Assembly (NCBI GenBank): GCA_000181795.3
Contig: CM012954.1
Span: 2,504,823 to 2,568,822, forward strand
DNA length: 64,000 nt
Reading direction: 5' to 3'
DNA from: Trichinella spiralis
Lineage: Eukaryota; Nematoda; Enoplea; Trichinellida; Trichinellidae
In this document: piece by piece, positions 8,661 through 45,810 of the stretch
Layout: each line of letters starts with the position of its first letter
Position numbering within the stretch: the stretch's first letter is position 1
The notes under the pieces: generated by a model
Seen by the model: only the letters and a program-made list of their open reading frames with translations
Told to the model about the DNA's origin: nothing
Database searches by the model: none
Position numbers and translations under genes: made by a program

Positions 8661-10097
8661 GGAGGAGGAGACAGATTTATGCATTAACTTCATTATTTCA
8701 GTGCCAAATAAATTGTTAGCAGCTTCACGTTTAATAATTATCAAAGTATCAATCCGTAGTTTCATGTTGATTTTAATAAAAATAACATACGAAAAATTCA
8801 GTGCATATTGTGCAAACAATACGGTAAAATATATTTCACTGAAACTGGGTTTTAAAATTTTTAAATATTCTATTTAATTTCGAACATTTGCAATAAAGTA
8901 CACTTAAACATGTTCGCTAATTATAAAGCAATATAGTTGATATATAATGCTTACCAATATTTAAAAAAAGAAACAAATAGATAGTTCAACCTAATATTCG
9001 ATCTTGTTATGCATCATTATCAACAACAACAACAAGAATAAATTATAAAAGTATAAAAGAAAACGTAAAAATAATTCATTAAACAGCAATGCATGCAACA
9101 TAGTGATATTAGACTTTAAACCTCGGAAGAAACGATCATCACTTAAGCCCATTTATAATGAAATTTGCTTAAAATTTTCCTCCATACACGTTTGCTGCGG
9201 AGTGTCAGTTTTCTCTTTTTATCAAAAGCTTAAATCATTTACGAAGCTAACATGTCAAATCTAACAATAAACGCAACAACAATTCATTTGTGAAATTTTA
9301 ACAGTTTGTAATGCACAAATTTTTAATTATGTCTATGTGTTTCAGTTTGCAGCGCTAATTCTTGCATCATCGCTTTCAGCATGATATTCGAGTATGGACG
9401 ACGATTTTACCTGTCCAATTCCAATCTATTCGCTTATCGCCCTTTGACATGCTTGTACGCATCGCCACATCTGATAACTCGAACATTTGGTCGTAGCAAT
9501 TTTGTACTAATTGTTTTATTACTTTCCGTGGAACGTCTACTCGCCTTGTACTACCCTATGTGGCATAAGCGCTTGTTTTCAGAACGTCAGTGCCGCATGT
9601 TGATGTGCTTAATTGCGTGCAGTTCAATTTCGATTGTGATCATACTTTGCCTCTGCGCATGGAACAATTCCAACGCACTCGTCTCACCTCAGTGTTCACT
9701 TCAGCAGACGTCTTACACGTTCACGCTTGCCATGGCTTATTACTACTTGATCGGCGATTCACTGAGCTGCTTGACCAATTGTATCCTGCTTTTCAAACTT
9801 TATCGGCGTCGATCAGTGTCGACAATGAACGTCTCAATCAGAAAAAGATGGATAGTGATAATCATAATGACGAATATCATTCTAGCCTTTGGACCGGATG
9901 TTGTCAACGTTATGCGCTTATGCGGTTCAGTCAAGCGTGGTGTACAACGGCTTTGCCAATTCATGAAACAAACCTACGCCTACGTTATGGTAGCGCTTTA
10001 CTTTTTCTCTTGTACAGATTTGGCAGAAAGTATGCGACGGACTTTCCGCTGTAACAAATGCTCCCTACGCAGGCCTCCTATTTTACCTGGCAACTGA
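7267..10097 (+). CDS. Seven-transmembrane G-protein-coupled receptor, rhodopsin/serpentine-like
   Basis: Two exons, 7267-7453 and 9346-10097, give 312 residues. The donor is T|GTAAGT, the acceptor TTTCAG|TT, and the codon across the junction is TTT in frame. Seven hydrophobic helices can be read: ALLIFLECSAFITQLLFIGI, then PMLIIFCSANSCIIAFSMIF, SNFVLIVLLLSVERLLALYY, CLIACSSISIVIILCLCAW, AMAYYYLIGDSLSCLTNCIL, RWIVIIIMTNIILAFGPDVV and YAYVMVALYFFSCTDLAESM. The end of TM3 reads VERLLALYYP, a variant of the DRY-type motif like that of nematode SRSX and peptide receptors. TM7 lacks a clear NPxxY. Cysteines near TM3 and in loop 2 (PQCSLQQ) could form the usual disulfide. The start could instead be the ATG at 7321. 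The intron carries large TA and GA microsatellites. Ligand unknown; RFamide precursors lie 4-10 kb downstream. A class A-like fold is fairly secure, the subfamily is not. Confidence 0.8.
8547..8657. repeat. Adjacent (TA)n and (GA)n microsatellites inside the GPCR intron
   Basis: About 33 bases of TA repeat (8549-8582) are followed within 10 bases by about 70 bases of GA repeat (8588-8657). Both are in the 1.9 kb intron of the GPCR gene. Confidence 0.95.
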
Positions 10098-14405: not shown

Positions 14406-15028
14406 ATGTCACCGGCTGTATTGAGATCTTTCACAATTTTTGCATTTCTGTTCACATGCTCAGCAACAGATACAACAGTGGTCAGCAAAGCACAATTACA
14501 TCAACACGAAATCAAACGAAACAACAAAGCACTCTGCTCAACAGAGGATCCCAAGCAATGCCTGTTCAGTTTGTTGCAGAAAATGTTGAAAGGAAATCAT
14601 TCGAAAGGTTTGAATACATTTTTGTTTTCTCATTTCGAGAAAAACTACCTCATCACATCACATCACATCACATCTCATCTCATATATTCTGTACCATAGC
14701 ATTATTAACGAATATCAAATTCAAATTTACATTGCGCATAAATTTCAAATTGCCAACACAACTAAATAACGTTCAGTGAAAAATTACTGATTATTTTTGT
14801 ACAAGGAACAATATGCTAATATTATTCATATTTTTAGGAATAACTCTCGTAAATCCTGCCGAATTTCTCCAAACACAAAGTATGTTTCTCTGCCCCATCA
14901 TGGACTTCGTTTTGTTCGAACAGTTTCCACTTTTAGATAAACTGCTGAACAATGCTGATCATGAAAGCAGAGACAGTTTCCATATACGATTTGGAAAACG
15001 TTCAACATTTCACGATAGCAAAGACTAG
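14406..15028 (+). CDS. RFamide-type (FLP) neuropeptide precursor, cluster member 1
   Basis: Exons 14406-14607 and 14838-15028, phase 1, 130 residues. The donor is AAAG|GTTTGA, the acceptor TTTTTAG|GA, and the split codon is GGA (Gly). A signal peptide is visible (VLRSFTIFAFLFTCSAT). Just before the junction is a cysteine pair, LCSTEDPKQCLFSLLQ (C-x7-C), followed by a helical stretch. A single predicted peptide lies near the C-terminus: a monobasic R, then DSFHIRFG, followed by KR and a 9-residue tail. The glycine is the amide donor, so an -HIRFamide is expected after processing in neurosecretory vesicles. The one-peptide, C-terminal layout with a cysteine pair differs from most nematode FLP precursors, which carry several copies, and recalls insect myosuppressin precursors. 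A polyadenylation-like AATAAA lies near 15113. Paralogous to the two precursors downstream. Confidence 0.8.
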
Positions 15029-15790
15029 CAAAGATTCTATACTTCAGAGAATTACTAACTGTATTGGAGATAATGAAGTAAAATGCACCACTTGAGCATT
15101 ATGCGTCACAAAAAAATAAAAGTGAAATATAACAACTAGCTGTGAAACTAATTTAAACAAACAGATATTCACCGCCCACATACAATACATCTCTTGCACA
15201 ATATTAAATCATCACTATTCAATAGTTATTAAAATCTGTTCGCAAATATGAAAATGAAAAATTGAACATTTCAAATCAAATTTAAATGAAAGTAAATCAA
15301 AAATGCATTTGAAAAAAACTCAGATAATTAAAACACATGCTGACAAATGTTAGGCACAGTAGCGAATTGACTATGAATTTCCATTTGCCCAGTAGTGGGG
15401 TTTCATTTTTTAATTAAGAAAACGGAAAATTATTCAATGTTATTCTTACAACATGATGAAAAATATTCTACAAACAAAAATCAGATGACATTAAATTTCT
15501 ATCTCCTTTTTCTGAGCACAGTGTAGGGTTTCACATACTTGAAATGAAATAAATTTTATCACACGCACTTCGCATGCATATAGGTAGGCAAGAAAGGCCC
15601 ACAGAATAATAAATGAACGATTGGTTTGTTTCCGCGGCAGAAAAAAGTGAAAAGAAAAGAAACAATTCAATAGCTGATGAAATAATATCAAAAATATTGT
15701 GTATTAAGGTTTCGGTACTTACGGGCAAAGTCGAAATTTTCTCTGCCAATGTGAACTTCAGCCTCGGTGTAGAAAGGTGTTGGTAATTGT

Positions 15791-16466
15791 ATGATCATGC
15801 TGCTTGTAGTAAAAGTTCTTTTCCTCAGCACTTTATCGATGCAGTCGTTGTCCTTTGAACTGTTCGATAGCACAAATCCATGCAAACATTCAACAGTCGG
15901 CACAAATTCAATGAACATTCCCTGCGAGCGTGATTATTACAGAATGCGCATACTTCAGTTGCTCCAAAATGTAATCAAAAGTACTTCGAACGGTATGACA
16001 GTATAATCATGTTTCCTCCATCTGTTTGCAGCTAAAATTAACACACTCTGCTGTATAAATTATTAATAATGTTCTATAATCTTCTATAATGCTCGAAATG
16101 TTTAAATAATGATTAAAGACACTTTATAACAACGTTTCATTATTATACGTTAAAAAGAATGAAAAATTTTCAGTAAAGTATTTGTATTTTGAATCATTTC
16201 TTTTAATTCAGTTTCCTAATGTTCCCTGAATTGCATTGTAAAGTTTAAAATCAACTTTAAACTACAGGAATTGTGTTGAAAAATTTCCGTGATGTCGTTT
16301 CAAATCAACACTCAGACTATGGACTTGGTACGTAAGATGTGAAAATATTTATATTTTCAAATCAATTTTACTGCAATTTCTAGGTAAAGAATATTGGAAA
16401 GAGCCGCTTATGCAGGGAAGGCATAGCATTCACTTGCGTTTTGGAAAACGATTTCAATTCAGTTAG
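15791..16466 (+). CDS. RFamide-type (FLP) neuropeptide precursor, cluster member 2
   Basis: Exons 15791-15992, 16268-16327 and 16384-16466, all junctions phase 1, 114 residues. Exon 1 is 202 bases, exactly as in member 1, and also ends one base into a glycine codon. The signal peptide is MLLVVKVLFLSTLSMQSLSF. The cysteine pair is wider (C-x13-C: NPCKH to IPCERDYY) and is followed by a helical RILQLLQNVI stretch. The last exon encodes one peptide, HSIHLRFG, followed by KR and the tail FQFS, so an -HLRFamide is expected. Cleavage before it is likely at the monobasic R of QGRHS. A 60-base middle exon has no counterpart in members 1 and 3. ATG at 15797 is an alternative start. Same strand and 0.76 kb downstream of member 1, consistent with tandem duplication followed by strong divergence. 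Confidence 0.77.
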
Positions 16467-18333
16467 CTTGGCAAAAACCGAGTACGACTACAGGCATGGC
16501 TTAAACCCAGTAAAATTCGTCCCAATTATACATATCATAAATGGAAAATATCAATATGTATAATGGCGGAAGTTACGTTGAATTTTGCAAAAAGCGTTAT
16601 TACAAAAATGTAACTTATATATTTCTATCTAATCGAAATGATCTTTCAACAATAATGAAAATAAACCGTGAACAGCTAATAATTGTAAATATTTTTTAAA
16701 AACAATGACGCAAATGCTTCAGCTTAGTTGAAAGTAAATGCATTTTTTGTGTAATATTATTTCAATTAAGAATCAATGTGCAATTTTAAAATAAATGACA
16801 ACAAACCCCGGAGAAATTAATTTGAAATAATTTTAGCTTTTAATGTAAATGTAAATTGATTTCATTAAAGTAATACAAAACCACAAAACACTGCTTTATA
16901 AATTAAGCATTGTGTTTGAGATTTATTTCAGAAAAGAAAAAAAATATACAGATAGAAAGAAAATTCCTACATATATATATATATATAAGAATTTGAGTGA
17001 AATGATAATTTAGCTTCCCACAAAAGAAGAATATCGACTTGTAAGAAAAATTTTAGTGAAAATTGAATCAATACTACACATTTGGAACAAATAAATGAAC
17101 TGAAAATTCACCGCCAATGACTTATTTCCATTTAAATAATTTTCCTCCGATGCCAATTATCAGTATAAAAAATAATAAAATAATAATGACGGATAAAGGG
17201 GCAGAGGGAGAGAAAAAACAGTTGCTGTCAGTTGGATAGCAATTTTCTGTTTTATTGACCAAGATCCACCAAAAAAAGCAGGAATGCCAAAATGACATGA
17301 ATACAATTTCAAAAACTGTGATTTCATAAAGAAATATCAATAAGGAAATCAATTTGACATTAAACTTTCATTAATTACATGCAACAAGCATAAAAGAATA
17401 ATACAGCACATATATATTATTTTAATAAATATGACTTCTACATTGATTGTACTTTCAATTTGAATAATACAACACTATTATTTTATTTGTTAAACTTATT
17501 CCAAAAACGCGTGCATAAGATACATTAAAAAGAAAATTTTAAAAATTAACATTTGCTTATTCATCGTTTAGAAAAATTCCACATTCTGATAAACCGTCAT
17601 TAGTTTTTCAGATAATATGTTATAATGTAATATAATATAATATAATATGCAAGATGATGTGGTAATTCAGAGGAAATAATCTGCAAAATCATACAGCAAT
17701 TACAGAATTACTTTAGGATAAAAAAGTTCAAAATATTAAAAACAGTTTTAAAAATAAAGAAAAACTAAATTAATAAAAGTTACGCGATTAATCATTGGAC
17801 TAAAAATTTTTATCAGTGATTATTATTCATTAATTTGTATTTACATGCTGCATATCCATGTGCATGCATGTATATTTCATGTAGTTGCACATTAATCGAG
17901 AAAAATTGCAAAATAAATGTCAAAATTATTAAACACCATGCAAATAGAAGATTATTATCAACTGGTAAAGTTATTGTTATAAAATGAGAATGTTGCTATT
18001 TTCGAAAAGTCAAGTTGCTAAGTGCTGCTGCTAATCTGCATTGGTTGAAGAAAAACACCACTAACAAGCTGAGCATAATTATAAAACAAAATGCTTTTCT
18101 AAATTAAATTCAACAAAAGATATTTTTTCATTTAAAGCATAGAATTGAAGAGTGATACTAATTTTCACAGATTATAACACAACTAATTCTGTAATAATAT
18201 TGAAAGAAAACCAAGAATTAAAAATGTATCGTCTAAAGTTAACACAACCTAATAAAATGTTATTTCTACCTTTTCAGAGAAATTTGAAATTTTAAAATAT
18301 TACAAAAGAACCACAAATTGTTCACGTGTGAAT

Positions 18334-18374
<41 letters not shown>

Positions 18375-18849
18375 AGAGGGGGGTGGGTGAGTTTGTCTAA
18401 ATGAATCACATCATTTATGCAAATGTACAAAAGGAAGCAGTACGGAATAAAAAATTTCTTCTACTGAGTGTTGTTTTCTTTTCAAAGCTCAAAATATCAA
18501 CATAACCGTTTCGAAATGTATCGCTAACATTACAAATAAGCAATAATAATAGGATATCCAAATGGAACTGATGTCGAATGAAAAAATTCAAATAGGTCAA
18601 ATATTGTGGTTACTATTTTCATTTAACAAATAGCATCAGCGGTATTATCACACAAATGCCGGTCGAAACAAACGCAAGCAACTGTTCATGTTAATGTTTG
18701 TAGAGTATCTCTCCCCCAATACAAATAATATCAAAACAAAAAAATTAAAAATATATAATACATGTGAATAATTCCATAATTGATTATAATTTGTATTGTA
18801 CAGTTCAGCTTGTTCACTGCTGGTGAATGCGTCAACCGACAGTGGCAAT
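16467..18849. other. Intergenic region, no supported gene
   Basis: AT-rich DNA between members 2 and 3 of the peptide cluster. It contains (AT)n at about 16971-16987, TAATA repeats at about 17623-17648 and a (GT)n tract at about 18335-18373. Minus-strand frames at 17122-17352, 18415-18600 and 18648-18848 show no domain or splice support. Confidence 0.55.
18335..18373. repeat. (GT)n microsatellite
   Basis: About 19 uninterrupted GT units, ending in a G-rich stretch. Confidence 0.95.
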
Positions 18850-18889
18850 TATCTGACTAGTACTTCAATTATCCATTAGCACCAGTTGG

Positions 18890-19192
18890 TGTCGCTTTTG
18901 TTTCCGCACGTAATCACGTGATTCGCTTTCCAAGCAGGGTGCCTGCGCACTTTCTGGCCACCTTTGAATGCGATTGTGGCGTTGAGGCGTCGCGAGGGCG
19001 TTTGGAAAATTCAACTAACAGAATTTCTTGATAAGGCGCAGACCAGCACCAAGGTCGACAGTTGTGAGCTTGTCAGAGCAACACGTTATCCATCCACACG
19101 TCGGACACATCCACAAGTTTGCACATCGTAGTACAGCATTTGCAGGTCGTCAAAGCTGCACCAACAGGCTAATAAGAACAACAGCAACAACC

Positions 19193-19226
<34 letters not shown>

Positions 19227-19424
19227 TCATTCAATTATTTTTACATTATTCTATTATTCATTGCCTTTCTACAAGCAATCCGTGAACGCTTAACCGTGGA
19301 AGTCAGTCAATGAGCAGTAGCAGCAGTAACAGTACAGTGAGTTAGATAGATAGATGGTAGTTGTTGGAGGGGAAAATTTTTTTTTGTTCTTCTTTTCCAC
19401 TACAAAAGTAATGAACAATTTCAG
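18890..19424 (+). promoter_or_regulatory. Candidate promoter and 5' untranslated region of RFamide cluster member 3
   Basis: Base composition rises sharply around 18890-19020 compared with flanking DNA. A perfect 10-base palindrome ATCACGTGAT with an E-box core lies near 18916. Downstream, a GTGAGT donor near 19336 and the acceptor TTTCAG ending at 19425, only five bases before the ATG, suggest a 5' untranslated intron or a trans-splice acceptor. A perfect inverted AAT/ATT tract lies at about 19197-19229. The regulatory role is inferred. Confidence 0.35.
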
Positions 19425-19430
19425 ACGACA

Positions 19431-19857
19431 ATGCTGTGGACAGTTATTTTGTTGACAACTTTGCTGTTCAACAGTTGCTTCGGATGGGAAGGTTGGTATT
19501 GGAATCCTGAAGAAGTGGGCGACGCTCACCATGATCTGGTAAAAATATGCGGATCCGAAGATCTTCGACCTTGCTACAAACGTATCTACGAGGCAGCTAG
19601 GGAGAATTTCAGAGGTATTTTTGTCGAAGAAATTTCATCCCTGCGTGCTTACTGCTTTGTTCCTTGTTATTCAAAAAATTAAATTAACATTTTCCGTTCA
19701 AGGTGATCCGGATGAAGAAAGCATGACGAAAGAGTTTATGGAAATTTTGGCACCAATGAAACAGATCATCGACCGACTGGAAGCTAAGAAAGAGAAACAA
19801 CGTCTGAACCGCGCTACGAGAACAACAAGCTATCACATCCGGTTCGGAAGAAAATGA
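19431..19857 (+). CDS. RFamide-type (FLP) neuropeptide precursor, cluster member 3
   Basis: Exons 19431-19614 and 19703-19857, phase 1 with a split glycine codon, 112 residues. The signal peptide is MLWTVILLTTLLFNSCFG. It is followed by a Trp-rich segment (WEGWYWNPEE) and a cysteine pair ICGSEDLRPCYKRIYEA (C-x7-C with the same S/T-E-D core as member 1). Exon 2 encodes a charged helix (EFMEILAPMKQIIDRLEA), dibasic-rich sequence, and a C-terminal TTSYHIRFG followed by RK and the stop. One amidated peptide ending -HIRFamide is expected, released by cleavage at the monobasic R of ATR. Unlike members 1 and 2, nothing follows the amidation signal. The acceptor five bases upstream of the ATG fits trans-splicing or a 5' untranslated intron. 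An AATAAA lies near 20137. Confidence 0.8.
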
Positions 19858-21692: not shown

Positions 21693-24600
21693 TTAAAGAA
21701 ACTGCTGCAAAGGGTGCCATTGAGAAGCTGGCAACGTGTGCAAAGCATCTAAAGCAGATAAAATCGATCTGAAATTTCGATAGTCTCATGAAAAATTCTG
21801 CACACTACAAATGGGAAACAACATATGAGAATCTTATGGCAGAGAACGACAACTGACCACAACAGAGAACAAGCGACAAACCACACGCATACACACACAC
21901 AGCTTCACAAGAAAACACTAATTTAGTTTTATGCCTTGTTTCAAATGAGACGTAACAATAAATAAAACAATGATAAAGATGATCATTCTCCACCACCAAA
22001 AGATAAAAAATAGACAAGCAAAGCGAGAAAATTATAAATCAAACAACTTGATGAGATAAACAAAAAAATTAACAAGGTAACTTACAAAAGCAAACAACAA
22101 ATCACTGTCAGTATACGCATATAATCAGAAAACACTTACCTGAAAGATTGATGATCACTTTTCCCAGAAATGTATTCTGCTTGAAACGATCATAACTCCA
22201 GACGGTGAATTCTAACATCTTGCCGAGCGCTTGTTCCAAGTTCAAGTCTTTGTAAACCACAGTTTGGTTCCACACGGGATTGTTTGATCGAGCAATGAAT
22301 TTCGTTCGACGCTTATTTTGTACACTATCAAAAAAGCAACAAAGTCAACAGTTGAACAGACAGACGGTGTGTAAGAAAAATATGGCAATAAATTAATAAA
22401 ATGTGCATATATGTACATTCGTTCAGGAAGAATGTATATTTTTACAAAGGGATTCGGGGGTCGTCGCTTTTTCGCATCGACGTTCGGCAACCGAGCTGCA
22501 CATAATACTGTGACGAACAGCGTGTCGGATGTGTGGTCAAAGCAGACGCGCAGTTTCAGCAAGCCCCCGTTGGCCAGATCCTGAGCAAGCAGTGAATTCT
22601 GAATTATATACAATAATTCAAGTGTCAATTTTTTTGCGTATCCAATCTCCTCCTATGTGTATGCTCTTAAAAGCAACAGCAATAAATAAAGGAAAAAATG
22701 AAGAGAAACAATAATTATAAAGTATAAAATTAGCACAAATATTAGCATATGTTGTACAAATGACAACGTGAAAGATATACACTGATTTCGGTCTTGTCCG
22801 AAGCTATTTTATTTCAGAAAACAAAGAATCTCAAAAGAATAGAATAAAGAAAAAAAACAATGACAGTATAGCGGTAGGATATTACGTGCAAAAAGCAATG
22901 GACCAGAAACAGAAGCGTGAAAAAATGAATAAATATATTAGATACACGGGCAAGGAATGGTCAGAAAGAGAAAAGCAATGTTTCTGTTTCCAAAAGTTGT
23001 TGACTGACAAAAGCAATTTTGCAAATGAAAAGAAGCTGCAGCAGACAGAAAAGTAACAACAAGTATTATCAATGATAACAACAAAATCAACTACACCAAC
23101 AACAACAATAATAATAATAATAATAACAGCAGTAACAAAATAAAATAAAGCATTGAAGCAGATTTGGTATTTTTGCTAGGAAGTGTTTCAGGTTACCTGC
23201 TGCTGATTCGCAGTGAAAGGTGATCGACTGCGTGGGGTGGTGCTGAAACACGGAGAAGCTTTACCAAAATCTAGCCCTTGACAATGCCTATCATTAGCTA
23301 AACAAAAATACACCAAAACGTCAGTATTTTTGTTTCCATTTATATTCTTATTTTAGTTCATTAAAAATATAAAAGAAGGATTAAACAAATAAAATAGAAC
23401 AAAACAGAATATTTCAAAGGGAAAAGTGATTTAGAAAATACATACAGATAATAAAGTCGCAACAAAACGATTGCTTACTTTGATCGAGTCCAGTTTTTCG
23501 TTGTAATGCTAATTTGGCTAAACGAGGATGTGCCAAATTGGACAAACAGCAATCACTTTCGTAACCCTTGTCCAAACTGCTACTTGGACCTTCTTCCAAA
23601 CGATACACTTGATTTAAATTGGCATCGCTGAAATAAATATTAACAACAAAACAAATAATGAATAATAAAGCGGCTGAAGTGAATAAAAATACACCGCACC
23701 TTCGTAGAACAATCTCAAATTCCCCTTCTGTATTGTCAATAATCGATTGAACTTCTTCGTAAGTTTTGCCTGTCAACTTTATGCCATTCCATTCCAATAT
23801 TTGATCGCCTAATAATAATAATAATAATATAATCAATGAAAACAGCAATGAAATTATATTACCTTCTTTCACTTCTTCCATCAAGTCTACCAAACCACCT
23901 TTATACACAGCAGCCACGTAAGCAACTAATTCGCCGTCAGAACCAGGTAAAATTTTACCACCAATAACACGCATACCTATGCCATGACCTGAAACAAAAA
24001 TGAATTTGTTTGAAGTAGAATTGAATTTCCAGTTCCAAACAAGCAACATACCGGAACGATCACGAACGTCGCGCACAAGCAACAGCCGTTTGATATTAGC
24101 CGACAATGGAGATGAAGCCTGACGAAAAATCGACTTACCCTCCTCTAGCAAAATTTGTGACGATGCCTAGAAATGGAAAAAAACGCCCGCTTCAGTGCTT
24201 CTCTTTGTTCACATGAAAGGCATAAACTGAAAAAGTTCATCCGGCTAAATTTTGGCACGTTTTCTTTTCCACCCTCTTTTTTCAAAGCTCAATTTCCCTC
24301 TGCTGATAGTTGCCGCCGCAAATTCACATTACATTCTTTATTTTCTCTTAAACCTTCTTTCATTCCATTATTAAATGAAAACGCGTTTTATTTAAATCTA
24401 ATTCGCTCTATGATACAAACAACCAGTCAAAATCACCAATTTGTATAAGTGAAGAGATTATTTCAGAAAAAAGAAGAGAATGATTTTTCTAAAAATAAAA
24501 CTTATTAATGGAAATATAGCATTTGCATAGTCATGCTGCAGAATTAAATAAATTGCAAACAAATAAGCAAAAATTCTGAAAACAAAGCAAATAGAAATAG

Positions 24601-27600
24601 AAGGTAGATTAAAAGATAGATAGATAGATAGATTGATTGATAACAAAATGAATACGATTTACACAGGGCAAATAAAGAAAAGCTCACAATAGGTCACGTT
24701 GATGTGGCTGGTAAAGATTAGGAACGTCAAATCTTACGCGTTGTCTATGATGATTTTCAACTGATGCGTTTTGCAGGCTTGAATCGATCAAATATGGATT
24801 ATATGACTGTGTTTTCAAATCTGAAAAAACAAGAAAACAACAATTTTCATCTTCTACATCGACCATTCGAATAAATTGAACCGGATATTTGACTTCTCTT
24901 TCACACCTGCATCGTATTGAGCAGATTTGACGCCTGAATAAAGAGGCTCTTGATCCTGTTGTCTTCTGCTTCTTCTTCTTCTGCTGTTGAATGCCGGCTG
25001 CTGGGCTGTCATGGAACAATAGTCGCGTGTCGATGGGTAAGTTTCCATGGGGGCATCGGTGCGACAGCCGTGCAACGATAAACAATCGTTCAACGGTTCA
25101 TCGTACTTGTCGTATGGGAGCCGACTGGCTATCGGTTCCATCACTGAACTCGGTCTACAGTTGAACTCAGTAGAGGAATCCGCATACGGCATGCATTTGG
25201 CAGTGGAACGGTCCTCGCAAAGTTTGCCATACCCGTCGTCCAGTGCACTGGAGCGACGTAGAAAATCGTTGTGCAAATAGTTCGCATAATGTGACAGCAT
25301 ACTGCTAGATCGGGGCGTGTTCACCTGCTCAGTTCCTGCTTCACCTGAAAAAAAGGAAAACATTTCATCAAACGTTTCGGAAAAAAAGAAGAAAAAGACA
25401 AAGCACGCATGCATGCATGCATGAGCAATTATCAATCTACTCACCAAATCTACGGCCTCTGCTGTAACCACGAAATGAGCATTCAGGTTGAGAATCGAGC
25501 GATTCGTAAAGATTGTTCAAATAGGGCAGTGACGAACTGAGCGATCTCTGACCATCAATGAACCAAGGTTTCTGATCCCGCCAAGTCAAAGTGTCGTAAT
25601 TTGCACGATGAAACGCCGAATCTTGACCATCGGCAAACGAAGCCGTGTCCGATCTGTACAGTCGGTCGTACTTTTGATACGGTCTCAACGGATAGCTAGC
25701 AGAAAAGGAGGATGGTTCGTTGTCATAAAGGGCATTTCTTGACATTGGAGAATAATCGTACAGTCGATCGATGCGTGGAAGTGAACCGTAGTGGCCGGAA
25801 AAACGATTCGAAGAATACAACGAAGGTGTAATGTAATTGTTCAATTCCATCCCGTCGTCCATGTAGCGGTACGTAGAATCAGCTCTGTGGGGCGGCAAGT
25901 TGAACAAATCTTCATAAGAGCTGAACTTCTCTCTACGTCGCGCGATTTCACGACGAATTTTCGATCGTCTGCTTTCACGTGAAGCGAAATCATCATCAGC
26001 TGAGAAATAAGTAAACGATTTTGAATTCAAATTTCGCCACTTCTTATTTCCCTCTGAACGTCGTCTAGCCATCAAACGATCTTAATCATAATCACAAAAT
26101 ACAATTCGCAAAATATGACAACAATGAACAAACACAATATACCTTCATCAATTTCATCCGTGCTTGTCGATATTGTTCTGCAAGTTGGACCATCGCTAGT
26201 TGATACGCCTACATTTTTGTGCTTGCTCAAGAGAAGATCATCTTTTGGTTTAAATCGAACAAAATTTCCACTGTTCGTCGTTTCGGACGATTGTTGCACC
26301 GTTTGTGTACTTGCATCTTTGTATTTTTCCAAAACGTCTGACGTCTGAACGGTAAAATCGTTACGCTTGGTTTGCTAAAAAATATTAAAAAAACACACAC
26401 ACACTAAAAATGGCGATCCACAAAATTTTACAAATAGCAGTACCACTGAATCATCTTTTTTTACAAACGATTCCTTTTTGCGAACAAGTCGGCTATTATT
26501 CCACTGTTCTTCACCACCATAGCTACCGTAACGTGACGACTGGCCGTAAGAATTGCTGAATTCAGCTTTGGATGACTCTCGTTGTCGAATTGAAGATAAA
26601 TAACGCGATCGATCAAAATGCACCACACAGCCGCGTACCATTTCTGGAGACAAGCCGCATCGAACCACTGACGGTGCTGAATCAACGCCAGCCGACTGCG
26701 GATACACACCAGTAGCCATATATCGCTGCAATAAACCCTCTCATTATCAACTGCCTCAATGAACAAAAAAATACATTGGACAAAGAATTGCATTTTTCAC
26801 TTTGAAGTTTAGTTTAAAATTTCGACATTTCAATAATAAGAAGAAAAAGAAGAATATGCAACTAAAATGGTCAAAGAAATGGAATAACAATATAACATTG
26901 ATAATTGAAACAAGGTGGCTTTACTCCCAACGAACAAATTCTTCGTTGATGGGCTTTCAATTTTCGGCCGCTTCCAATTTTGTCCCAGTCGTTTGGTAAG
27001 CGGCTTCCCGCAGTTCTTGCTTGGAGTAGCACTCGGTGCAAGCGGTGGGGCGGCAGCAGACGTCGACATTGGTAGCCAGAGGCGTTGAATGCTGTGGCCG
27101 CAACGTTTGCCCAATGTTCTTCCACGAACTCGGCATGCTGATGNNNNNNNNNNAAGTCAAACAATTGAACAGCCAGCCGGTGTGTAAGAAAAATATGGCA
27201 ATAAATAATAAAATGTGCATATAGGTCGATTCGTTCAGGAAGAATGTATATTTTTACAATGGGATTGGGGGTCGTCGCTTTTTCGCATCGACGTTCGGCA
27301 ACCGAGCTGCACATAATACTTGACGAACAGCGTGTCGGATGTGTGGTCAAAGCAGACGCGCAATTTCAGCAAGCCCCCGTTGGCCAGATCCTGAGCAAGC
27401 AGTGAATTCTGAATTATATACAATAATTCAAGTGTCAATTTTTTTGCGTATCCAATCTCCTCCTATGTGTATGCTCTTAAAAGCAACAGCAATAAATAAA
27501 GGAAAAAATGAAGAGAAACAATAATTACAAAGTATAAAATTAGCACAAATATTAGCATATGTTGTACAAATGACAACGTGAAAGATATACACTGATTTCG

Positions 27601-30600
27601 GTCTTGTCCGAAGCTATTTTATTTCAGAAAACAAAGAATCTCAAAAGAATAGAATAAAGAAAAAAAACAATGACAGTATAGCGGTAGGATATTACGTGCA
27701 AAAAGCAATGGACCAGAAACAGAAGCGTGAAAAAATGAATAAATATATTAGATACACGGGCAAGGAATGGTCAGAAAGAGAAAAGCAATGTTTCTGTTTC
27801 CAAAAGTTGTTGACTGACAAAAGCAATTTTGCAAATGAAAAGAAGCTGCAGCAGACAGAAAAGTAACAACAAGTATTATCAATGATAACAACAAAATCAA
27901 CTACACCAACAACAATAATAATAATAATAATAACAGCAGTAACAAAATAAAATAAAGCATTGAAGCAGATTTGGTATTTTTGCTAGGAAGTGTTTCAGGT
28001 TACCTGCTGCTGATTCGCAGTGAAAGGTGATCGACTGCGTGGGGTGGTGCTGAAACACGGAGAAGCTTTACCAAAATCTAGCCCTTGACAATGCCTATCA
28101 TTAGCTAAACAAAAATACACCAAAACGTCAGTATTTTTGTTTCCATTTATATTCTTATTTTAGTTCATTAAAAATATAAAAGAAGGATTAAACAAATAAA
28201 ATAGAACAAAACAGAATATTTCAAAGGGAAAAGTGATTTAGAAAATACATACAGATAATAAAGTCGCAACAAAACAATTGCTTACTTTGATCGAGTCCAG
28301 TTTTTCGTTGCAATGCTAATTTGGCTAAACGAGGATGTGCCAAATTGGACAAACAGCAATCACTTTCGTAACCCTTGTCCAAACTGCTACTTGGACCTTC
28401 TTCCAAACGATACACTTGATTTAAATTGGCATCGCTGAAATAAATATTAACAACAAAACAAATAATGAATAATAAAGCGGCTGAAGTGAATAAAAATACA
28501 CCGCACCTTCGTAGAACAATCTCAAATTCCCCTTCTGTATTGTCAATAATCGATTGAACTTCTTCGTAAGTTTTGCCTGTCAACTTTATGCCATTCCATT
28601 CCAATATTTGATCGCCTAATAATAATAATAATAATAATAATATAATCAATGAAAACAGCAATGAAATTATATTACCTTCTTTCACTTCTTCCATCAAGTC
28701 TACCAAACCACCTTTATACACAGCAGCCACGTAAGCAACTAATTCGCCGTCAGAACCAGGTAAAATTTTACCACCAATAACACGCATACCTATGCCATGA
28801 CCTGAAACAAAAATGAATTTGTTTGAAGTAGAATTGAATTTCCAGTTCCAAACAAGCAACATACCGGAACGATCACGAACGTCGCGCACAAGCAACAGCC
28901 GTTTGATATTAGCCGACAATGGAGATGAAGCCTGACGAAAAATCGACTTACCCTCCTCTAGCAAAATTTGTGACGATGCCTAGAAATGGAAAAAAACGCC
29001 CGCTTCAGTGCTTCTCTTTGTTCACATGAAAGGCATAAACTGAAAAAGTTCATCCGGCTAAATTTTGGCACGTTTTCTTTTCCACCCTCTTTTTTCAAAG
29101 CTCAATTTCCCTCTGCTGATAGTTGCCGCCGCAAATTCACATTACATTCTTTATTTTCTCTTAAACCTTCTTTCATTCCATTATTAAATGAAAACGCGTT
29201 TTATTTAAATCTAATTCGCTCTATGATACAAACAACCAGTCAAAATCACCAATTTGTATAAGTGAAGAGATTATTTCAGAAAAAAGAAGAGAATGATTTT
29301 TCTAAAAATAAAACTTATTAATGGAAATATAGCATTTGCATAGTCATGCTGCAGAATTAAATAAATTGCAAACAAATAAGCAGAAATTCTGAAAACAAAG
29401 CAAATAGAAATAGAAGGTAGATTAAAAGATAGATAGATTGATAGATTGATAACAAAATGAATACGATTTACACAGGGCAAATAAAGAAAAGCTCACAATA
29501 GGTCACGTTGATGTGGCTGGTAAAGATTAGGAACGTCAAATCTTACGCGTTGTCTATGATGATTTTCAACTGATGCGTTTTGCAGGCTTGAATCGATCAA
29601 ATATGGATTATATGACTGTGTTTTCAAATCTGAAAAAACAAGAAAACAACAATTTTCATCTTCTACATCGACCATTCGAATAAATTGAACCGGATATTTG
29701 ACTTCTCTTTCACACCTGCATCGTATTGAGCAGATTTGACGCCTGAATAAAGAGGCTCTTGATCCTGTTGTCTTCTGCTTCTTCTTCTTCTGCTGTTGAA
29801 TGCCGGCTGCTGGGCTGTCATGGAACAATAGTCGCGTGTCGATGGGTAAGTTTCCATGGGGGCATCGGTGCGACAGCCGTGCAACGATAAACAATCGTTC
29901 AACGGTTCATCGTACTTGCCGTATGGGAGCCGACTGGCTATCGGTTCCATTACTGAACTCGGTCTACAGTTGAACTCAGTAGAGGAATCCGCATACGGCA
30001 TGCATTTGGCAGTGGAACGGTCCTCGCAAAGGTTGCCATACCCGTCGTCCAGTGCACTGGAGCGACGTAGAAAATCGTTGTGCAAATAGTTCGCATAATG
30101 TGACAGCATACTGCTAGATCGGGGCGTGTTCACCTGCTCAGTTCCTGCTTCACCTGAAAAAAAGGAAAACATTTCATCAAACGTTTCGGAAAAAAAGAAG
30201 AAAAAGACAAAGCACGCATGCATGCATGCATGAGCAATTATCAATCTACTCACCAAATCTACGGCCTCTGCTGTAACCACGAAATGAGCATTCAGGTTGA
30301 GAATCGAGCGATTCGTAAAGATTGTTCAAATAGGGCAGTGACGAACTGAGCGATCTCTGACCATCAATGAACCAAGGTTTCTGATCCCGCCAAGTCAAAG
30401 TGCCGTAATTTGCACGATGAAACGCCGAATCTTGACCATCGGCAAACGAAGCCGTGTCTGATCTGTACAGTCGGTCGTACTTTTGATACGGTCTCAACGG
30501 ATAGCTAGCAGAAAAGGAGGATGGTTCGTTGTCATAAAGGGCATTTCTTGACATTGGAGAATAATCGTACAGTCGATCGATGCGTGGAAGTGAACCGTAG

Positions 30601-33600
30601 TGGCCGGAAAAACGATTCGAAGAATACAACGAAGGTGTAATGTAATTGTTCAATTCCATCCCGTCGTCCATGTAGCGGTACGTAGAATCAGCTCTGTGGG
30701 GCGGCAAGTTGAACAAATCTTCATAAGAGCTGAACTTCTCTCTACGTCGCGCGATTTCACGACGAATTTTCGATCGTCTGCTTTCACGTGAAGCGAAATC
30801 ATCATCAGCTGAGAAATAAGTAAACGATTTTGAATTCAAATTTCGCCACTTCATATTTCCCTCTGAACGACGTCTAGCCATCAAACGATCTTAATCATAA
30901 TCACAAAATACAATTCGCAAAATACGACAACAATGAACAAACACAATATACCTTCATCAATTTCATCCGTGCTTGTCGATATTGTTCTGCAAGTTGGATC
31001 ATCGCTAGTTGATACGCCTACATTTTTGTGCTTGCTCAAGAGAAGATCATCTTTTGGTTTAAATCGAACAAAATTTCCACTGTTCGTCGTTTCGGACGAT
31101 TGTTGCACCGTTTGTGTACTTGCATCTTTGTATTTTTCCAAAACGTCTGACGTCTGAACGGTAAAATCGTTACGCTTGGTTTGCTAAAAAATATTAAAAA
31201 AACACACACACACTAAAAATGGCGATCCACAAAATTTTACAAATAGCAGTACCACTGAATCATCTTTTTTTACAAACGATTCCTTTTTGCGAACAAGTCG
31301 GCTATTATTCCACTGTTCTTCACCACTATAGCTACCGTAACGTGACGACTGGCCGTAAGAATTGCTGAATTCAGCTTTGGATGACTCTCGTTGTCGAATT
31401 GAAGATAAATAACGCGATCGATCAAAATGCACCACACAGCCGCGTACCATTTCTGGAGACAAGCCGCATCGAACCACTGACGGTGCTGAATCAACGCCAG
31501 CCGACTGCGGATACACACCAGTAGCCATATATCGCTGCAATAAACCCTCTCATTATCAACTGCCTCAATGAACAAAAAAATACATTGGACAAAGAATTGC
31601 ATTTTTCACTTTGAAGTTTAGTTTAAAATTTCGACATTTCAATAATAAGAAGAAAAAGAAGAATATGCAACTAAAATGGTCAAAGAAATGGAATAACAAT
31701 ATAACATTGATAATTGAACAAGTGGCTTACTCCAACGACAAATTCTCGTTGATTGGCTTCAATTTCGGCCGCTTCCAATTTGTCCAGTCGTTTGGTAAGC
31801 GCTTCACGCAGTTCTTGCTTGAGTAGCACTCGTGCAAGCGTGGGCGGCAGCAGACGTCGACAATTGGTAGCCAGAGGCGTTGAATGCTGTGGCCGCAACG
31901 TTTGCCCAATGTTCTTCCACGAACTCGGCATGCTGATGACATTGTTGTAACTGCTTCCGCCAGTGATACCAGTGATGCCACTGCCGTTGGCCGTTGTCGT
32001 TGAAGAGCACACCGGTCCGGCCGACCAGATAATGTTGCACAACTGTTCGTCAACATCCTGAACAATACATTGTATTATTCTTTATTTTTCGCCTCAAATC
32101 GAATGGATTTTTTTTCACCTGTTGGTGTCGGTTGGAGGCAATTTTTGGTATATTCGGCAGTTTGCGGCGACCCATTTCACCGGGTGATGATTGGGCAAAG
32201 AATAGCCGTTCATTCTAAAAAAATTCATTAAAAAATGTTTATTATAAAAAAAGAAAAAAAGTATTTCAAAAACATCTTGTTCTGGCTTAAAAATCTATAA
32301 TAAAATCTATCATTTTAGTCAGAGCAGCTCCAGGTTTTCCTCTTACATTTGCATGATAGGAATAATGCAATTAATAATGTGCAATTTTTTCCCTTTCATA
32401 TGCAATAATAACGACAAAATAATAATAATAAGCGTTTTGCAAAACGATAAGTTTAGCCGAACGACGTGACCTACCCAGCTGTGAAAAGCAGCGCCGTGCA
32501 CAATCGATGGAATTGAACAATTGTTGTTACCCTCTCTTTACACATATATAAATATATATATATATATCTTTCTTCCCCAAGCTGGCGCGAACTTTTCACA
32601 ACGAAGCTGCAACAGCAAAAACTAGGCGAAAAAAAAATCAATCCTGCACACAATTAACTAACGGCAAACCGTTGTGAATCAAAGAAAACGATCTCTGGCG
32701 TTTGTGAAAACAAGAAAAACACTTTAATTTTTAGGGAAAGTTCATCTGCTGCTTACTTGAGAAAAGCAGTCAGCAGTCGTGTGAAATTTGAAAAATAATC
32801 AAATCTAATTATTCATCAATTATAGAAATCAGATGGATTTAGAAATTCATGAACAAATCACTGCCGTCATTAACACTTTCAAGTAGATTAATAATCCACA
32901 ATTAAATAAATTTCAAATCAAACAAGATATATATATATATATATATAGTGGACAGTTGCAGAGTAGGAATTGCTAAATGAGAGAAAAAGTGCCACAAAGT
33001 GAGTGAAATGTTATGTTAAACATCAAACAACAATCAATAAGCCGAAGTTAAAAGTGTCAAATTGTGTAGCCGTTGAAATCGATAAAATGACACAGGCGGA
33101 AGTAGATATCAGCCACAGGTACAATTTCCACTTCATTTGCCCTCTCTCCCTCTCTTGTCTTTAATTTCAATCTTGACTTTACACAATAACACTTGATACT
33201 TACTGGATATTAAAGTAAATTACAATCATTAGCTGTTATTTCAATTATCCACAAAAATGCACATCTTCGTCAAAAAAAACAAAACTCGCCCCTTTTTCTA
33301 TTAGAAAATCATTTGAAAAAATACCCAAATAATACAACAAATAATTGTATTCTTATCAAATATGAATAATAAAATGGAAATAAGAATATAAATGAAATTA
33401 AATTAAAATAAGATAAACATTTGAAAATAACTTTGAAATGAAAAAAAAATTACGAATGATATATAAAGAACAAAGATGAGTGAAAGTAAAGACGAATGAT
33501 GAGGGGTTGGATGAATGAAGTATGAATAAGAAAATTCTCTTTTTTGAAGTCAATTACCACACTGTGTGCTATTGTAAAAATGCATGCGAATAAATTTGTA

Positions 33601-45283: not shown

Positions 45284-45810
45284 AAAACTAACGTTGTCAA
45301 TGCTCAACGTCAAATCGACCCGACATTTGTGTTAGCGTTTGCTTTCAGCGCTTCAAAATCAACACAACTACCCACCACCACCACCATTCGTTCACTATTT
45401 CCAATCAATCCAATGGAATTGTTGTCTACCTCTCGGTAAGTAGAATTCATTAATTTTCCAACAATCACTGGTAATAATTTTCAAGTTGAAATCAAATAAA
45501 ATTCACAAGTTCAAAAAAACATCCTGCATTTGTCAAATAAACTTTCCCCAATAGACAGACAGATATGCATATCTATTTTGCACATTTGCAAAATATTATA
45601 GTAAAATATATTATTGAAGATAATGCAGTATGTTTGCCAGATCAATGCACGGATGTGTCATTTGATCCAATGGAGTGCCTTTTTCACCTGCGCGAATTCA
45701 TGTTTGCCGTTCACGCGTTCAAACAACTGCTAACGAACGAAACAAACGTGTTCAGCGTTGTAAACAGGGCAACTGTGCAGAATATCATAAATAACAACAA
45801 ACGCTTATAG
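45284..45810 (+). CDS. Weak candidate small gene with Cys motif
   Basis: A frame open from a possible acceptor at 45283 runs to a donor CTCG|GTAAGT at about 45432. The next acceptor AATAG|AC at 45554 continues the frame (phase 2) to a stop at 45810. The second exon contains QCTDVSFDPMECLFHLREFM, which resembles the LCSTEDPKQCLFSLLQKM segment of RFamide member 1 in cysteine order and the CLF-L core. No RFG peptide follows and no good signal peptide starts the frame; the only early ATG (45412) gives a hydrophilic start. It may be a decayed or distant relative, or chance. Confidence 0.22.

What the first reader, a model, noticed from the sequence alone, without database searches (positions are those of the whole stretch)
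14406..19857. Three-gene cluster of single-copy, C-terminal -H[I/L]RFamide precursors carrying a cysteine pair
Each precursor has a signal peptide, a cysteine pair upstream of a phase-1 intron, and exactly one RFamide peptide at the C-terminus (DSFHIRFG-KR, HSIHLRFG-KR, TTSYHIRFG-RK). I do not match H[I/L]RFamide to a named nematode FLP. Most nematode FLP precursors are multi-copy and lack a conserved cysteine pair. The layout recalls insect myosuppressin precursors, which also have one C-terminal RFamide and two upstream cysteines. This could be an undescribed peptide family.
Basis: partly seen in the sequence, partly recalled or inferred. Interest (0 to 1): 0.78.

Follow-up and report, generated by a model that had tools for sequence, protein, structure and literature searches.

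The report
Three unnamed RFamide neuropeptide genes
Three neighbouring genes of the muscle worm Trichinella each appear to make one short RFamide nerve peptide; the published lists that were read do not include them, and they are built like this worm's ordinary FLP neuropeptide genes.

Summary
Window 14406-19857 holds three same-strand genes, each with a hydrophobic (signal-like) start, a cysteine pair, a phase-1 intron and one C-terminal RFamide: DSFHIRFa, HSIHLRFa, TTSYHIRFa. The genome is Trichinella: the splice models match public 'hypothetical proteins' (g1 100% T. patagoniensis, g2 100% T. spiralis, g3 97% T. pseudospiralis). The reading as a new, myosuppressin-like kind is not supported. 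Cysteine pairs and single-peptide precursors are ordinary in nematode FLPs, Trichinella's own flp-14 and flp-8 have the same layout, and the peptides lack the myosuppressin HVFLRFamide end. Best account: three undescribed flp genes with a new consensus, S[F/I/Y]H[I/L]RFa. Published lists give T. spiralis only flp-1, -8, -14 and -18, and a 2024 survey gives clade 2 nematodes 3.9 flp genes on average, found with known flp sequences as queries. The cluster would raise Trichinella's count to at least seven. Expression, peptide processing and presence in Trichuris were not tested. New member of a known kind; moderate interest.

The parts
14406..14607 (+). g1 exon 1: ATG, hydrophobic signal-like stretch, Cys44-x7-Cys52, helix-like segment; phase-1 donor in a Gly codon
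   Evidence: identical to P0003 there
14838..14879 (+). g1 exon 2 (GITLVNPAEFLQTQ); phase-1 donor; the following 57-nt intron is retained in one public model (P0006)
14937..15028 (+). g1 exon 3: ...ESR|DSFHIRFG-KR-STFHDSKD, stop
   Evidence: DSFHIRFGKR invariant in 5 of 5 aligned rows, one of them the window's own model
15791..15992 (+). g2 exon 1: signal-like stretch, Cys31-x13-Cys45; phase-1 donor in a Gly codon
   Evidence: identical to P0002, T. spiralis T01_2633
16268..16327 (+). g2 exon 2 (GIVLKNFRDVVSNQHSDYGL); phase-1 donor
16384..16466 (+). g2 exon 3: ...QGR|HSIHLRFG-KR-FQFS, stop
   Evidence: identical to P0002
19431..19614 (+). g3 exon 1: signal-like stretch, Cys40-x7-Cys48; phase-1 donor in a Gly codon (a 5' exon may add residues, as in P0001; not resolved)
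19703..19857 (+). g3 exon 2: helix-like spacer, ...ATR|TTSYHIRFG-RK, stop
   Evidence: g3 97% identical to P0001

Best explanation
The cluster is three FMRFamide-like peptide (flp) genes of Trichinella without a name. Each precursor would enter the secretory pathway by its signal peptide (inferred from hydropathy). The Cys pair and helical propeptide would fold and help sort it into dense-core vesicles (inferred, as PMC11658156 proposes for other FLPs). A convertase would cut at the GKR or GRK site, and probably at a single Arg upstream, and the Gly would be used for amidation, giving DSFHIRFa, HSIHLRFa and TTSYHIRFa (inferred). These would act on RFamide GPCRs of the DMSR/FRPR type (inferred). 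Origin: g1 and g2 look like tandem duplicates; the set shares gene architecture with flp-14 and flp-8 and probably comes from that stock; g3 is more diverged.
For: Gene models and intron phases; independent annotation, and conservation of g1 in several Trichinella species. Own flp-14 (C-x19-C, phase-1 intron in Gly) and flp-8 (C-x10-C, three exons, two phase-1 introns, as in g1 and g2) have the same architecture. Outside the RFamide g1-g2 are similar, shuffle p 0.006; exon 2 anchored at the intron: g1-g2 p 0.0011, g1-flp-14 p 0.0044, g2-flp-14 p 0.037. The genome holds two partial Cu2_monoox_C matches over cut-off (amidation-enzyme family) and 11 Srw-family 7TM matches; that DMSR-type receptors match Srw is recalled.
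Against: No expression, peptidomic or receptor data. Unanchored alignments of the three with flp-14 and flp-8 are not significant (6 of 6 pairs, p 0.26-0.92), g2-g3 are not similar (p 0.78) and g1-g3 only marginally (p 0.056). Post-Cys segments: 10 of 10 pairs p at least 0.29; g3's exon 2 resembles none of the others (p 0.63-0.98). The p values are uncorrected, over 15 and 20 pairs. No dibasic site precedes the three peptides. AlphaFold models are low confidence (mean pLDDT 44.0 and 56.8).
Confidence: 0.85

Rival explanations
1. They are orthologues of arthropod myosuppressin: a single C-terminal RFamide after a Cys pair, acting on a myosuppressin receptor.
For: Single C-terminal RFamide and two upstream cysteines (insect layout recalled); nematodes have DMSR receptors related to Drosophila myosuppressin receptors (PMC5241116 passages; PMC8515059 passages).
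Against: The peptides lack HVFLRFamide (lobster form pQDLDHVFLRFa); the layout is shared by Trichinella flp-14 and flp-8 and by other FLPs.
Confidence: 0.05
2. They are fast-evolved orthologues of a named crown-clade flp gene with a Cys pair (such as flp-6, -12 or -17), not a new gene group.
For: Conserved propeptide stretches, some with cysteines, are reported in several FLP prepropeptides (PMC11658156 section 9); single-peptide genes such as flp-12 exist (section 7).
Against: No motif of PMC4058706 Table 1 ends in S-x-H-[I/L]-RFa; the 2024 survey, with those genes as queries, found 3.9 flp genes on average in clade 2; the profile search returned only Trichinella proteins at E<=10. The search tool needs shared 5-residue words, so distant orthologues could be missed.
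Confidence: 0.09
3. Chance RFG-basic strings in non-coding DNA.
For: RFGKR-type strings are barely above chance genome-wide: 135 against 110 for the reversed control pattern.
Against: Clustering, splice sites, signal-like exons, public gene models and an unchanged g1 peptide in several Trichinella species.
Confidence: 0.01

Closest known systems
Trichinella flp-14 (KHEYLRFa precursor, L067)
   Same: Signal-like start, Cys pair, helix-like segment, phase-1 intron in a Gly codon; exon 2 begins GIIFDIPAEIL against GITLVNPAEFL in g1
   Different: Three RFamide copies (KHEYLRF, KHDYLRF, KHEYLRF) after KR sites; unanchored similarity not significant
Trichinella flp-8 (KNEFVRFa precursor, L065)
   Same: Three exons, two phase-1 introns, Cys pair in exon 1, an RFamide at the C-terminus
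   Different: A second RFamide (KALFVRFG) in exon 2; different motif; no significant sequence similarity
FLP-13-like precursors of some other nematodes
   Same: One copy ends in -PHIRFG (6 of 104 proteins)
   Different: Those 6 carry six or seven RFamides; a Cys pair in 0 of 21 FLP-13-type hits
Arthropod myosuppressin
   Same: One C-terminal RFamide; Cys pair (recalled)
   Different: HVFLRFamide end is absent here

Membership tests
Nematode FMRFamide-like peptide (FLP) precursors | C-terminal Arg-Phe followed by Gly and basic cleavage residues | tested here: met
   RFG-KR, RFG-KR, RFG-RK
Nematode FMRFamide-like peptide (FLP) precursors | N-terminal signal peptide | tested here: inconclusive
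   Hydrophobic N-terminus in all three; no signal-peptide predictor available
Nematode FMRFamide-like peptide (FLP) precursors | Secreted, amidated peptide shown by mass spectrometry or activity | not testable with these tools
   Expected [M+H]+ 920.474, 908.521, 1023.537
A named flp gene | Peptide motif of that gene | tested here: not met
   No motif of PMC4058706 Table 1 fits; supplements of the 2024 survey were not readable here
flp-14/flp-8 stock | Cys-pair exon ending in a phase-1 intron within a Gly codon | tested here: met
   3 of 3 cluster genes, flp-14 and flp-8. Not shown for all FLPs: flp-1 could not be joined in frame, and the flp-18-like locus L035 was not modelled; its signal-like ORF has two Cys, 20 and 27, at the end of the hydrophobic stretch
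flp-14/flp-8 stock | Significant sequence similarity outside the RFamide | tested here: inconclusive
   Exon-2 anchored p 0.0044 (g1) and 0.037 (g2) with flp-14, none for g3 or with flp-8; unanchored not significant
Myosuppressin | C-terminal HVFLRFamide | tested here: not met
   Peptides end SFHIRF, SIHLRF, SYHIRF; lobster myosuppressin pQDLDHVFLRFa
Myosuppressin | Activates a myosuppressin receptor | not testable with these tools
   No assay possible

The most novel reading that the evidence does not exclude
The cluster is a remnant of an old single-copy, Cys-loop RFamide gene group that predates the split of FLPs from myosuppressin-type precursors. Clade 2 nematodes kept or expanded it while crown nematodes lost it, so the four-gene ancestral flp set in print is an artefact of searching with crown-clade queries.
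Probability: 0.12. Interest if true: 0.65.

Novelty: new member of a known kind. Interest (0 to 1): 0.42.

Why it matters
A 2024 survey of 108 species gives clade 2 nematodes 3.9 flp genes on average and infers an ancestor with at least four, using C. elegans flp queries and one Meloidogyne query (PMC11658156 sections 5, 17, 18). Three more flp genes in Trichinella would nearly double its set. They would show that lineage-specific FLPs escape such searches, and would give missing ligands for the RFamide receptors of a parasite of people and livestock.

Tried and rejected
[quoted passage not shown] 1 legend); here the 4 glutamate synthase matches lie on C1 near 9.99 Mb, not near the cluster on C2. 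Rejected as an orthology clue.

Other HxRFG sites as further family members: L002, L022 and L031 are dibasic-flanked, but no ORF like the precursors' first exon was seen in the 1.5 kb upstream; short hydrophobic ORFs with scattered Cys do occur there. Window 45541-45810 recalls the Cys exon, but the scan found no RFG-basic site on the + strand from there to the window's end.

Structure: both AlphaFold models are low confidence, so no fold search was made. Pfam gave nothing useful for the three precursors (one E 0.14 match of g3 to an iron-hydrogenase model, below cut-off, taken as chance).

Literature: at least two of HIRFG, HLRFG and nematode: 0 papers; HIRFamide with neuropeptide: 0; SYHIRF, SFHIRF, SIHLRF or three gene names: 23 papers, the 20 listed matching only one gene number by accident, 3 not listed. 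Listings for Trichinella with FLP terms showed no paper on these genes by title or abstract start; I did not open most of them. Most subscription journals and all supplements were out of reach, so an earlier report cannot be excluded.
Full report
Observation. The stretch 14406-19857 was read and translated in the three + frames; the whole window was scanned for RFG-basic strings on both strands. It holds three genes on the + strand. With GT-AG introns they translate to 111, 114 and 112 residues, each with one RFamide at or near the C-terminus: DSFHIRFG-KR, HSIHLRFG-KR, TTSYHIRFG-RK. The five introns are phase 1, and the first intron of each gene splits a Gly codon. The three peptides share S-[F/I/Y]-H-[I/L]-R-F-G. 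None is preceded by a dibasic site; each follows a single Arg.

Organism and independent support. The window lies on contig C2 of an unnamed 53-Mb genome in 14 contigs. The g3 protein is 97% identical to a T. pseudospiralis hypothetical protein. A profile of the three found 6 proteins at E<=10 among 65 candidates, all Trichinella. P0003 (T. patagoniensis) equals my g1 model and P0002 (T. spiralis) equals my g2 model letter for letter. The genome is therefore Trichinella, most likely T. spiralis or a close relative. g1 relatives from T. zimbabwensis, T. pseudospiralis and T. nativa keep the Cys pair and everything from the peptide to the C-terminus unchanged, while the N-terminal part varies. 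One of them (P0006) retains the second intron, which is in frame. For g2 no second public protein came up, and for g3 only P0001.

More than chance. A degenerate DNA pattern for H-[ILMF]-[R/S]-F-G-x has 33 sites in the genome, the reversed control 20. I read 30 of 33 on both strands (which replaces the one-strand reading); 22 of the 30 read H[ILMFV]RFG. The other dibasic-flanked ones (L002, L022, L031) lack an exon like the precursors' first exon in 1.5 kb upstream; the cluster's three genes and flp-14 and flp-8 all have one. Six sites with a single basic residue, and three sites not cut out, were not pursued. Three sites in one 5.45-kb strand stretch are expected 1.6e-5 times per genome under a Poisson model.

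What it is. That contrast fails. A bait search returned 104 FLP-like proteins at E<=10 of 3146 candidates. By peptide class, a Cys pair precedes the first RFamide in 8 of 10 FLP-8-type, 6 of 7 FLP-6-type, 3 of 3 FLP-1-type, 3 of 36 FLP-2-type, 0 of 21 FLP-13-type, 0 of 9 SSYxRFG-type and 0 of 18 other proteins. The criterion was loose (two Cys after residue 12, 3-30 apart), so some pairs may include a signal-peptide Cys. The bait was my choice and does not sample all FLPs. PMC11658156 (abstract and sections 5, 7, 9, 17, 18 read, the rest as passages) reports conserved cysteines and helical propeptides in several FLPs and lists nine single-peptide flp genes.

In the same genome I found genes for the four flp types that are published for T. 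spiralis (PMC4058706 Table 1): flp-14 at C1:12.98 Mb, flp-8 at C1:13.30 Mb, flp-1 at C2:4.48 Mb and an flp-18-like gene at C1:1.19 Mb (read). flp-14 and flp-8 have a signal-like start, a Cys pair and a phase-1 intron in a Gly codon, and flp-8 has the same three-exon, two-phase-1-intron plan as g1 and g2. In flp-1 a C-x3-C exon lies before the RFamide exons, but I could not join it to the signal exon in frame. The flp-18-like gene was not modelled; its signal-like ORF has two Cys (20 and 27) at the end of the hydrophobic stretch and none beyond. So the shared layout is shown for two of the four known flp genes. The survey of RFamide genes is not complete: of 135 RFGKR-pattern sites only part was cut out and read.

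Relationship. Outside the RFamide, g1 and g2 are similar (local-alignment shuffle p 0.006; exon-2 anchored p 0.0011). g1 and g3 are marginal (0.056), sharing a C-x-x-E-D-x-x-x-C segment; g2 and g3 are not similar (0.78). Exon 2 of flp-14 resembles g1 (anchored p 0.0044) and weakly g2 (0.037). The remaining comparisons, including the six unanchored ones with flp-14 or flp-8 and the ten post-Cys ones, are not significant. These are 15 and 20 pairs without correction. So tandem duplication of g1 and g2 is fairly well supported, descent from an flp-14/flp-8-like stock rests mainly on gene architecture, and g3's place is open.

Mechanism. Shown: open reading frames, splice signals, cysteine pairs, amidation and cleavage motifs, and conservation within Trichinella (best seen for g1). 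Inferred: secretion, folding by the Cys pair, cleavage at a single Arg, amidation, and action on RFamide GPCRs. The genome has two partial Cu2_monoox_C matches over cut-off and 11 Srw-family 7TM matches. T. spiralis is reported to keep 22% of the C. elegans neuropeptide-GPCR set (PMC8515059 passages), and DMSR receptors are related to Drosophila myosuppressin receptors (PMC5241116 passages). Which receptor these peptides use is unknown.

Novelty. The motif is in no row of the published table I read. The 2024 survey credits clade 2 with 3.9 flp genes on average after BLAST with C. elegans queries plus one Meloidogyne flp-31 query; its main text does not name Trichinella, which the 2014 papers do (PMC4405611, PMC4058706). 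I could not read its supplements or search Trichuris proteomes further, so I claim 'undescribed as far as searched', not 'absent from print'. It is a new member of a known kind.

Noticed in passing
window 22342-27143 and 27154-31938: A 4.8-kb direct repeat, 98.8% identical, its copies separated by 10 N (27144-27153), next to C2-domain coding sequence at 22108-22344; probably an assembly duplication.
   Followed up: partly
window 12870-12476 (-): A likely two-exon gene for a small protein with a signal-like start, next to the cluster on the other strand; no RFamide; possibly another secreted peptide.
   Followed up: no
window 45541-45810 (+): An ORF with three cysteines and a helix-like run that recalls the Cys exon of the cluster; no RFG-basic string on the + strand from there to the window's end.
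   Followed up: partly
window 9327-10097 (+): A 7TM-like ORF about 4 kb upstream of the cluster, weak Srx match (E 0.033, below cut-off); receptor type not settled.
   Followed up: no
L084 (G000 C2:4484163): Trichinella flp-1: the signal exon and the C-x3-C exon do not join in frame with the splice sites I looked at; one more exon or another donor is likely.
   Followed up: partly
P0011, P0014, P0023, P0024, P0031, P0041: FLP-13-like precursors of other nematodes carry one -PHIRFG copy, so the HIRFamide end is either old or arose more than once.
   Followed up: no
L031 (G000 C3:4202250): A string GRHHLRFGKRWR before a stop, without a precursor-like first exon in 1.5 kb upstream; probably chance.
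   Followed up: partly
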